This document shows, piece after piece, positions 27,534 to 61,529 of a DNA stretch of 64,000 nt. The stretch comes from Natronoflexus pectinivorans (GTDB taxonomy: Bacteria; Bacteroidota; Bacteroidia; Bacteroidales; Marinilabiliaceae). The notes under the pieces are model-generated. The model did no database searches. It was not told the DNA's origin and saw only the letters and a program-made list of their open reading frames with translations. Both the position numbers and the translations under genes were made by a program. The DNA is taken from positions 62,001-126,000 of the forward strand of contig NZ_SLWK01000004.1 of the NCBI RefSeq assembly GCF_004345615.1, read 5' to 3'. Position 1 is the first letter of the stretch; each line of letters begins with the position of its first letter.

Positions 27534-27893
27534 CAAGTCGGTGATTTTGCAATAATTAGTGATCGACTTAATAATATAGATTTCTCGCTCTGCTCGAATT
27601 GACAAAACTTTCAGAAAGTCAAGGCGAGTGATTGGGTGATGGCGGCTTCACCGCCATCGCCCAATCACCTCTCACAACGAAAAAGCCTGTCATTTCAAGC
27701 GAAGCGAGAAATCGATTACATGATTACTAATTTAGAAAAACTTAGTCGGGCAGTAGTGATTTTGAAGTATCAACACTTTATAATACAAGGAGAAGCCGCA
27801 TAACCGAATAGCTATAAGGCTTATCCTTTTTCATAAAATCATTCTACACCCAATCATTCATTTTTAAATGAATAGATTGCTGGCATTGATCTA
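27534..27893. other. intergenic region filled by a nested inverted repeat
   Basis: Separates the convergent nitroreductase and DUF6588 genes. The central 135 nt are the repeat described at 27579-27713; the flanks are AT-rich with no gene. Confidence 0.7.
27579..27713. repeat. nested inverted repeat, copy A
   Basis: Outer arms 27579-27604 (GATTTCTCGCT...GACA) and 27688-27713 (TGTCATTTC...GAGAAATC) are imperfect inverted repeats. Inside lies an 18-bp hairpin, arms 27628-27645 and 27651-27668, with a CTTCA loop and one G-T wobble. A smaller palindrome ACTTTCAGAAAGT sits at 27607-27619. The outer arm resembles an intergenic element I recall as common in Bacteroidota genomes. A second copy with a different core is at 61220-61361. 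Confidence 0.85.
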
Positions 27894-48097: not shown

Positions 48098-48664
48098 CTA
48101 TTTAACTATTATTGCCGGCAAAGTTAAAACATCAACCTTTAAATAATTGCTTAAACCAGCATAATTACGGGCACTTGAATATAAATAGTCTTCGGCATGT
48201 TGAACTATTTGCGCTCGGACTGGATTGTTATGGATATACTCGATTTTCTCAGCTATAAAATCGTTTGAGTATAACAGTACTGCATGATTCTCATGAGTCC
48301 AAACCTGATAGGAACTATTACGCTTATGTTGTGACGCGGCTTTGCTAAAAACACTTAACAACCATTCTCTCCTGCTCTCTGGCATTGAATTTATAGTGTC
48401 TATAATCCTTTTACTTGTAAATTTCTTTATATCTCTAATTGTGCCACTTAAATCACCTATGCTGCTATTGGCAATTAAATGCACATGGTTTGACATTATG
48501 ACGTAAGCAAACAACTGAAAACCTTTATTCTCCATTGCATAACGAAAACTATCCAAAACTATATCACGATAAACTGAACGCGAAAATATATCTGCCCCAT
48601 TTACGACTTGGAAAGTAAGGTAGTGCAATCCATCTTGTTCCTTAATTTGATAACCTGTTGACAT
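48098..48664 (-). CDS. REP-associated tyrosine transposase (RAYT) 1
   Basis: A 188-residue Y1/HUH-superfamily protein of the IS200-like TnpA-REP branch. The HUH motif is IMSNHVHLIAN (His-Val-His, about residue 60). The conserved RAYT tail IEYIHNNPVRAQIVQHAEDYL and YSSARNYAG is present. Other typical blocks are FRYAMENKGFQLFAYV and IKKFTSKRIIDTI. RAYTs are single-copy, domesticated-looking relatives of transposases that act on REP hairpins, and the gene is flanked by such hairpins on both sides. It looks intact. Confidence 0.88.
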   Translation of the reverse strand: MSTGYQIKEQDGLHYLTFQVVNGADIFSRSVYRDIVLDSFRYAMENKGFQLFAYVIMSNHVHLIANSSIGDLSGTIRDIKKFTSKRIIDTINSMPESRREWLLSVFSKAASQHKRNSSYQVWTHENHAVLLYSNDFIAEKIEYIHNNPVRAQIVQHAEDYLYSSARNYAGLSNYLKVDVLTLPAIIVK

Positions 48665-48831: not shown

Positions 48832-49401
48832 CTAAATCCGCTCCAATTTTATCGATTCTTTTACAATCTCCAAATAATTACTAAGCCCTGCATAATTCCG
48901 TGCAGAACTCCATAAATAATCTTCTGGCCTTTCAACAATTTGTTCATCTACGGGATTGTTATGAATGTAGTTTAGCTTTTGGTCAAAAAACTTATTGGAT
49001 TCTATTATTTCGGCATGGTTGCCATGTTGCCAGAATTTATAATCTTTTACGTTTTTAAGGTTCTCGGCGGCTTTTTTAAAGTAAGAGAGCATCCATTCAC
49101 GCCGACTTTCAGGCTCATTAATTATTGCATGAACAATAGCTTTTGACGTAAACTTTTTAAAATCACGCAAAATATCTGATAATGAATGCCGCTTTGATAC
49201 CGCTTTGGCTATAATATGTAGATGACTTGGCATTAAACAGTAAGCATATATCTCTAGGCCTTTTTCTTTCTGGCAGTATCGCAGCGAATTAAAAAGTGTT
49301 TGTTTATGATTTTTACGAGTAAAAACATCAATCCAGCCAACTACTGTTAACGTTAAAAAATAGGCTTTGCTGTTGTCGAAAATCTTGTATTTGTCAGACA
49401 T
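48832..49401 (-). CDS. REP-associated tyrosine transposase (RAYT) 2
   Basis: A 189-residue protein from the ATG at 49401 (MSDKYKIFDNSKAYFLTLTVVGW). The open frame continues to 49530, but that part translates a REP hairpin region and is not family sequence. The HUH motif is MPSHLHIIAKA; the tail LNYIHNNPVDEQIVERPEDYLW and SSARNYAGLSNYLEIVKES parallels RAYT 1. The two proteins are clearly related but diverged, and in the same orientation. A broken third copy of the tail lies 0.9 kb away. It looks intact. Confidence 0.88.
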   Translation of the reverse strand: MSDKYKIFDNSKAYFLTLTVVGWIDVFTRKNHKQTLFNSLRYCQKEKGLEIYAYCLMPSHLHIIAKAVSKRHSLSDILRDFKKFTSKAIVHAIINEPESRREWMLSYFKKAAENLKNVKDYKFWQHGNHAEIIESNKFFDQKLNYIHNNPVDEQIVERPEDYLWSSARNYAGLSNYLEIVKESIKLERI

Positions 49402-49472
49402 AGAATTAAGGTTTTGATTATACAAGATAAGAATTTGTGTAGAATTATTTGTGACTCTATGATTGAAAGTAA

Positions 49473-49548
49473 AGCACGAGTTGCAAACTCGCGCTAACAG
49501 CATTACATTGCAGCGTTGTAGTAATAGCACGAATTACAAATTCGCGCT
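49473..49548. repeat. two REP-like hairpins upstream of RAYT 2
   Basis: AGCACGAGTT (49473-49482), loop GCA, AACTCGCGCT (49486-49495); and AGCACGAATT (49526-49535), loop ACA, AATTCGCGCT (49539-49548). Both keep the same stem length and 3-nt loop; the second changes G to A on one arm and C to T on the other, so the pairing is preserved. Confidence 0.85.
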
Positions 49549-61054: not shown

Positions 61055-61219
61055 ATCACGCTTCTGTTTATATTAAAGGGGGTGCAACAATTTTATGCTG
61101 CTTAAAAAAATAAACCGAAAGATAATTAAAAGAATGATTGGAAATAAAAATAATCTCAAAAAATATTATTATCAACTGATGTTCGGTAAAATAAGAATTA
61201 ATACAAAAACTTGGGTTTA

Positions 61220-61361
61220 GATTCCTTTCCGCAAGGCAGAATTCGAAATGACAGCTGTTTAGGTTTAAATTGAATGGGGTTCGTAACGGCAAAACCGTTA
61301 CGAACCCCATTCAAAGCAAAAAATCACAAAAGTTTTGTCATTTCGACCAAAAGGAGAAATC
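61220..61361. repeat. nested inverted repeat, copy B
   Basis: Outer arms end in GAAATGACA (61245-61253) and start TGTCATTTCGACC (61336-), closing with GAGAAATC (61361). Inside is a perfect 20-bp hairpin, arms 61270-61289 and 61295-61314, with a 5-nt loop. The outer arms match those of copy A at 27579-27713, but the inner hairpin has no similarity to that of copy A. Confidence 0.85.
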
Positions 61362-61529
61362 CCGAAAACTTTCCAAGAAACCAATGATTCTCTTTAAAAA
61401 CAAAAAAGTCACATGTCATGTTATATCCATAGATTGGAAAAAATGCTTAGATTAGCATTATAATAAGGATGGTTACTATTATTGGCATTTCAGATTCAAT
61501 GCCGTTTAGTTAAGGCATTTTTCCTTCCC

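What the first reader, a model, noticed from the sequence alone, without database searches (positions are those of the whole stretch)
27579..27713. Nested inverted repeat with interchangeable core (copy A)
Outer arms of a TGTCATTTC...GAGAAATC family enclose, at 16-23 nt distance, a near-perfect 18-bp hairpin. The copy at 61 kb has the same outer arms and a different perfect 20-bp core. A conserved frame with a variable, always self-complementary centre is not what a simple MITE or terminator would show. It may be an element into which other hairpins insert, or one that generates them.
Basis: partly seen in the sequence, partly recalled or inferred. Interest (0 to 1): 0.65.

Follow-up and report, generated by a model that had tools for sequence, protein, structure and literature searches.

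The report
Mobile element with self-repairing palindromic core
A 205-bp jumping DNA element, part of a family spread across Bacteroidales bacteria, carries a central palindrome whose sequence changes from copy to copy yet nearly always stays self-complementary, which suggests that each half is recopied from the other, and it offers a candidate answer to how an orphan class of repeats with no known transposase gets around.

Summary
The 27.6-kb structure is one of about 25 copies of a 205-bp non-autonomous transposon with three nested inverted-repeat layers. (1) Terminal repeats CACTRCTGWCCGRCTAA with 9-bp target duplications; both match IS4-family (DUF4372) insertion sequences in relatives, and a sister species has empty sites. 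(3) An 18-20 bp palindromic core with a 3-nt loop. Cores are not unrelated inserts: within a family they are homologous, but left and right halves change together (13 of 20 pairs changed on both sides in a 13-copy set; permutation p<=5e-5 over all 21 copies), while the arms of the same copies do not covary. Cores diverge faster than the spacers, loops occur inverted, and at one orthologous insertion the core is flipped between species. The pattern recurs across Bacteroidales (43 of 295 sampled genomes match; covariation replicated in six). Best explanation: an IS4-mobilised MITE carrying a REP dimer, whose core is homogenised and inverted by hairpin-templated strand switching. Selection for a hairpin is the main rival. 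Cores are not ordinary terminators; no free-standing core was found.

The parts
27544..27553 (.). degraded left target-site duplication (ATTTTGCAA, against ATTTTGAAG at 27759-27767; 7 of 9)
   Evidence: sequence; 9-bp duplications perfect in sister copies L056 and L066
27554..27570 (+). left terminal inverted repeat, degraded (AATTAGTGATCGACTTA; family CACTACTGACCGGCTAA)
27579..27604 (-). left arm, CGTC-type REP-like (GATTTCTCGCTCTGCTCGAATTGACA), tag end facing inward
27605..27626 (.). left spacer, conserved in family A
27627..27646 (+). left half of the palindromic core
27647..27649 (.). core triloop (TTC here; GAA in other copies)
27650..27669 (+). right half of the palindromic core
27670..27687 (.). 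right spacer
27688..27713 (+). right arm, CGTC-type REP-like (TGTCATTTCAAGCGAAGCGAGAAATC)
27742..27758 (-). right terminal inverted repeat (CACTACTGCCCGACTAA on the minus strand)
27759..27767 (.). right target-site duplication, degraded
61173..61190 (+). family-B copy: terminal inverted repeat (CAACTGATGTTCGGTAAA)
61220..61253 (-). family-B copy: arm on the low-coordinate side, diverged
61270..61289 (+). family-B core, left half (perfect 20 bp)
   Evidence: 45 of 45 identical in the orthologous copy of G001
61295..61314 (+). family-B core, right half
61336..61361 (+). family-B copy: arm (TGTCATTTCGACCAAAAGGAGAAATC)
61373..61389 (-). family-B copy: second terminal repeat, heavily degraded

Best explanation
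The feature is a non-autonomous, MITE-type transposon. Its ends are recognised in trans by an IS4-family (DUF4372) transposase, which inserts it with a 9-bp target duplication. Its cargo is a head-to-head pair of CGTC-type REP-like palindromes (the arms) enclosing a perfect or near-perfect palindrome with a 3-nt loop (the core). The core stays palindromic while its sequence changes because the nascent strand switches template within the hairpin during replication: one half is copied from the other, which homogenises the halves and sometimes inverts the loop or the whole core. Shown: element boundaries, target duplications, empty sites, the IS4 terminal-repeat match, correlated change of the core halves, loop inversion, and one orthologous core inversion. 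Inferred: the identity of the mobilising transposase, and template switching as the cause of the correlated change. No function for the host is shown.
For: MITE: about 25 copies with fixed spacing; terminal repeats; 9-bp duplications, perfect in L056 and L066; empty sites in G001, cleanest at L066 with exactly TAAAATAAT duplicated; IS elements of 1.3-1.4 kb in relatives with the same type of end, 9-bp duplications in L104, L105 and L107, and Pfam DUF4372 plus DDE_Tnp_1 in L104, L106 and L107, NCBIfam IS4. Arms: tag and head-to-head layout as in the CGTC superfamily (PMC3733652). Core: all 21 family-A copies have 58 left/right mismatches against 105.5 when halves are permuted, p<=5e-5; arms of the same copies p=0.72. 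In a 13-copy set 13 of 20 pairs have changes on both sides, 0 of 500 shuffles as high; arms 0 of 26. The core diverges more than the spacers (0.23-0.24 against 0.16-0.20; bootstrap 0.999), which structural constraint alone would not predict. Loops are TTC 10: GAA 5 in family A and GTA 5: TAC 4 in Perlabentimonas. Orthologous L082/L057 cores are inverted relative to each other. In G046, otherwise matching cores differ by 4 nt on both sides (L172, L185). Covariation recurs in six of seven other genomes, for example G329 with 0 of 96 mismatches against 25.5 permuted. Homogenisation and spacer inversion are the published footprints of template switching (PMC8604942, PMC8794818).
Against: No switching event was observed directly. 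The 13-copy set was chosen for good cores; with all 21 copies there are 41 two-sided, 12 one-sided and 43 unpaired cells, so intermediates exist, and mosaic copies L054, L056, L064 and L076 show one half changed. Model R1 favours paired cores, so the order-wide hits are biased towards palindromes; the unbiased arms-only search gave only five genomes. No intact DDE_Tnp_1 transposase was found in this draft genome. Some copies elsewhere (G029, G116, G295, Deltaproteobacterial L130 and L135) have the arms but other or no recognisable IS4-type ends, so IS4 is not the only carrier.
Confidence: 0.6

Rival explanations
1. The core hairpin is maintained by selection because it does something (in the transcript, in transposition, or as a protein target), and the correlated changes are ordinary compensatory point mutations.
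For: Strong pairing across the order; core identical (0 of 45) in the W61 orthologues while the rest differs at 22 of 211 positions, p=0.018; conserved GGCGGC-nnn-GCCGCC centre in most genomes; one-sided and mosaic intermediates exist.
Against: Core diverges faster than the spacers. Inverted loops, an orthologous core flip and symmetric indels are not predicted. No bias to convergent or tandem gene neighbourhoods. Many two-sided changes are G-C to T-A, which cannot pass through a G-U intermediate.
Confidence: 0.3
2. The cores are separate mobile hairpins that insert into, or are swapped between, a receptive frame.
For: Different perfect cores inside near-identical frames, for example G121 and G329.
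Against: Core-sized BLAST hits in the own genome lie only inside elements; cores within a family are homologous and share a centre; no empty frames of otherwise normal structure, only deletion derivatives.
Confidence: 0.05
3. The arms are REPs mobilised by REP-associated tyrosine transposases (RAYTs), as in REPINs; the IS4-like ends are incidental.
For: Three Y1_Tnp genes in the genome, two of them RAYTs in this window; head-to-head palindromic arms.
Against: 9-bp target duplications and DDE-type terminal repeats at the insertion boundary; no arm-like sequence beside the window RAYTs or the third gene; CGTC REPs are reported not to be linked to RAYTs.
Confidence: 0.05
4. The core is an ordinary bidirectional intrinsic terminator of the flanking genes.
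For: The window copy lies between convergent genes.
Against: No T-run after the stem and no terminator call on the core; 9 tandem, 7 divergent, 4 convergent sites; the species that lost the core at this site keeps a separate stem followed by a T-run next to the gene.
Confidence: 0.03

Closest known systems
IS4-family (DUF4372 plus DDE_Tnp_1) insertion sequences and MITEs derived from IS elements
   Same: Same kind of terminal repeats and 9-bp target duplications as IS4-family elements in relatives; multicopy, non-coding, with empty sites
   Different: The interior is not a deleted IS but a REP-like dimer with a fast-changing palindromic core
CGTC-tagged REPs (Di Nocera et al. 2013, PMC3733652)
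   Same: TGTC variant of the tag, A-T then T-A as first two stem pairs, head-to-head dimers, presence in Bacteroidetes
   Different: Here inside a transposon with IS4-type ends and enclosing a second, palindromic core; the paper reports no associated transposase
REPINs and RAYT systems (GTAG REPs)
   Same: Paired inverted palindromes, non-autonomous, intergenic
   Different: No GTAG tag, no arm-like repeats beside the RAYT genes, DDE-type target duplication
Template-switch (quasipalindrome) mutation, PMC8794818 and PMC8604942
   Same: Arm homogenisation, multi-base compensatory change, loop or spacer inversion
   Different: Those studies concern RNA genes and yeast coding DNA; here it would act on a mobile element's core across an order of bacteria

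Membership tests
MITE mobilised by IS4-family (DUF4372) transposase | terminal inverted repeats matching an autonomous family | tested here: met
   CACTRCTGWCCGRCTAA against CACTAGTGTCCCATTAA, CACTGCTGTCCCGTTAA and CACTAGTGACCGATTAA at IS4-family elements of relatives
MITE mobilised by IS4-family (DUF4372) transposase | target-site duplication of the same length as the autonomous element | tested here: met
   9 bp in L056, L066 and in IS copies L104, L105, L107
MITE mobilised by IS4-family (DUF4372) transposase | multicopy with empty orthologous sites | tested here: met
MITE mobilised by IS4-family (DUF4372) transposase | autonomous partner in the same genome | tested here: not met
   no PF01609 match in the draft genome; intact partners only in other genera of the family. 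A partner in the same genome is usual but not required for past mobility
MITE mobilised by IS4-family (DUF4372) transposase | transposition in trans demonstrated | not testable with these tools
   needs experiment
CGTC-REP superfamily (arms) | CGTC/TGTC/CCTC tag at one end | tested here: met
   TGTC at the inner end of both arms
CGTC-REP superfamily (arms) | 8-9 bp stem beginning with complementary A/T pairs, loop 4-5 | tested here: inconclusive
   ATTTCGAGC-GAA-GCGAGAAAT: nine stem positions, two of them G/A mismatches, loop 3 (sequence reading)
CGTC-REP superfamily (arms) | mostly head-to-head dimers | tested here: met
   tags face each other at fixed spacing
REPIN / RAYT system | GTAG tag and RAYT gene flanked by the same repeats | tested here: not met
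Intrinsic terminator | G+C stem followed by a T-run | tested here: not met
Template-switch homogenised inverted repeat | correlated change of both arms beyond chance | tested here: met
Template-switch homogenised inverted repeat | inversion of the spacer between the arms | tested here: met
   orthologous L082/L057 and loop counts
Template-switch homogenised inverted repeat | direct observation of the mutation event | not testable with these tools
   needs strain series or reporter assay

The most novel reading that the evidence does not exclude
Across Bacteroidales, a REP-dimer transposon carries a dedicated self-templating palindrome: a hairpin that evolves quickly but rewrites its own second half and so is always self-complementary. 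The perfect hairpin would be needed for the element's life cycle (for example replication-coupled transposition or REP-dimer function), making it a sequence-independent, structure-only heritable feature of a mobile element. IS4-family transposases would be among the missing carriers of CGTC REPs.
Probability: 0.2. Interest if true: 0.85.

Novelty: new variant of a known kind. Interest (0 to 1): 0.6.

Why it matters
CGTC-type REPs were described in several phyla with no transposase (PMC3733652); finding REP-like dimers of this kind inside elements with IS4-type ends, 9-bp duplications and empty sites gives a testable carrier. The core is also a natural, many-times-replicated record of two-sided change in a hairpin, with a built-in control (the arms of the same copies), so it can separate template switching from selection on structure, a question usually argued from RNA genes alone.

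Tried and rejected
RAYT/REPIN origin (two RAYT genes are in this window, but their flanks hold no arm-like repeats). Intrinsic terminator. Known RNA family (no Rfam match in the window). Free-standing hairpin insertion. A clean empty site for the window copy itself: the G001 orthologue has instead lost the left half and core by deletion. Whether the two-position stem change (G-C, then G/A mosaic, then T-A) happened once or repeatedly could not be decided because the tree of young copies is star-like. An excess of G-U pairs as a sign of RNA-level selection was looked for by eye in the pair table and not seen. Loop orientation in the other genomes could not be used, since those cores were not oriented by their ends. 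Literature searches found no description of this element.

Full report
OBSERVATION. The arms at 27579-27604 and 27688-27713 and the near-perfect core are present. Folded as single-stranded DNA, the element and the 61-kb copy have z-scores of -7.3 and -6.6 against dinucleotide shuffles. The arm pattern occurs 56 times in the 4.47-Mb draft genome and never in the reversed-pattern control. Most arms fall in inverted pairs with a start-to-start distance of 109 bp.

BOUNDARIES. Aligning copies showed homology beyond the arms. The whole element is about 205 bp and ends in CACTACTGACCGGCTAA on one side and CACTGCTGTCCGACTAA on the other. In the window copy this is 27554-27758, with the left end degraded. 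Nine-bp target duplications flank the element: perfect in L056 (ATTATCAAT) and L066 (TAAAATAAT), one mismatch in L054, L064 and L072; several copies show none. The same-genus genome G001 has empty sites for young copies; at L066 the filled and empty sites differ by the element plus exactly one 9-bp copy. One insertion (L082 and L057) is shared by both species, so the family was active both before and after their divergence. At the site of the window copy, G001 keeps the right part of the element and has lost the left half and core.

CARRIER. The terminal repeats match those of complete IS elements in other genera of the same family. L104 and L105 (1.32 kb) and L107 have these ends and 9-bp duplications; L106 has the ends but no clear duplication. 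The proteins of L104, L106 and L107 carry DUF4372 and DDE_Tnp_1 and score as IS4-family transposases. No DDE_Tnp_1 gene was found in the window's own draft genome, so an active partner there is not shown.

ARMS. The arms carry a TGTC tag, a stem that starts with A-T and T-A, and lie head to head. This fits the CGTC REP superfamily, in which the tag is often TGTC and head-to-head dimers predominate; the same paper states that these repeats apparently lack a dedicated transposase (PMC3733652). The stem has two G/A mismatches and a 3-nt loop, so membership is probable, not proven. The two RAYT genes in this window (48098-48664 and 48832-49530, minus strand) and the third Y1_Tnp gene have no arm-like repeats beside them.

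CORE. Within family A the cores are homologous, but the halves change together. Over all 21 aligned copies (G000 and G001) there are 58 left/right mismatches against a permuted mean of 105.5 (p<=5e-5); the 26-bp arms of the same copies give p=0.72. In a 13-copy alignment 96.5% of core cells pair, 13 of 20 pairs have two-sided changes and 0 of 500 shuffles reach this; the arms have none. That set was picked for good cores. Counting every copy gives 41 two-sided, 12 one-sided and 43 unpaired cells. Four mosaic copies carry one ancestral and one changed half. The core diverges more than the spacers between the same arms (0.23-0.24 against 0.16-0.20; core above spacer in 99.9% of bootstraps). The triloop occurs in both orientations relative to the ends (TTC 10, GAA 5; in Perlabentimonas GTA 5, TAC 4). 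At the orthologous insertion L082/L057 the core is inverted between species while spacers and arms keep their orientation. One family-A copy (C1:340351-340555) has the whole arm-to-arm segment inverted relative to its ends.

FAMILY B. The 61-kb copy belongs to a related, older family. Its cores show the same two-sided variation (TTGAATGGGGTTCGTAACGG, TTGAATGGGTTTAGTAACGG, TTGGATGGAGTTAGTGACGG, TTGGATGGTGTTAGTGACGG; permutation p about 0.005). Its G001 orthologue keeps the core 45 of 45 while the rest differs at 22 of 211 (p=0.018). By eye, family-A, family-B, Perlabentimonas and G032 cores align as one ancestral palindrome, so 'different core' most likely means diverged core; this alignment was not tested statistically.

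DISTRIBUTION. An arm-pair pattern found nine frames in Perlabentimonas gracilis (Tenuifilaceae, Bacteroidales), all with palindromic cores. A covariance model matched 9 of 71 genomes of the family and 43 of 295 sampled genomes of the order. Of 98 fetched loci, 95 have a core score of 12 or more; the model favours paired cores. The arms-only pattern, which does not ask for a palindrome, hit five genomes, and the listed non-own hits read as palindromic. Left/right covariation was significant in six of seven other genomes tested. Two Deltaproteobacterial MAG loci have the arms around direct repeats instead, and G029 copies have other outer ends, so arms plus core are not tied to IS4-type ends everywhere.

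MECHANISM. Shown: transposon boundaries, target duplications, empty sites, IS4-type ends, correlated core change, loop and core inversion. Inferred: mobilisation by an IS4-family transposase, and template switching within the hairpin. Template switching between inverted repeats is reported to homogenise arms and invert the spacer (PMC8604942) and to create and maintain hairpins by multi-base compensatory change (PMC8794818). Selection for the hairpin alone does not predict inversions, symmetric indels or a core that evolves faster than its spacers, but it is not excluded, and both may act.

NOT TERMINATORS. No T-run follows the core. Insertion sites are 9 tandem, 7 divergent and 4 convergent. 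Where G001 lost the core, a separate stem with a T-run beside the gene is still there.

VERDICT. Observation confirmed and widened; interpretation partly supported; new variant of a known kind.

Noticed in passing
window 48098-48664 and 48832-49530 (-): Two adjacent RAYT genes (REP-associated tyrosine transposase, NF047646) with their own palindromic-looking flanks (for example GCGCGAGTTTGTAACTCGTGCC); unrelated to the arms.
   Followed up: partly
G000:C9:1723-1784 (L092): A 62-bp remnant consisting of little more than the two terminal repeats of family A, an extreme internal deletion.
   Followed up: no
L096 (G000:C1:884175), L108, L118, L120: Another repeat family with the same IS4-type end and its own nested inverted repeats (AAAATCAGATTG... 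enclosing AATCCGG...CCGGATT with GAGCGAAGCGAG inside), in several genera.
   Followed up: no
L130:3929-4048 and L135:6539-6664 (Deltaproteobacteria MAG): The same arms around tandem direct repeats instead of a palindrome, within a different outer inverted repeat.
   Followed up: partly
L265, L267 (G029:C17:4750-5430): Arm-plus-core elements with non-IS4 outer ends, partly tandemly repeated.
   Followed up: no
window 27788-27835: A separate stem followed by a T-run next to the DUF6588 gene; in G001 its stem differs by what look like compensatory changes.
   Followed up: partly
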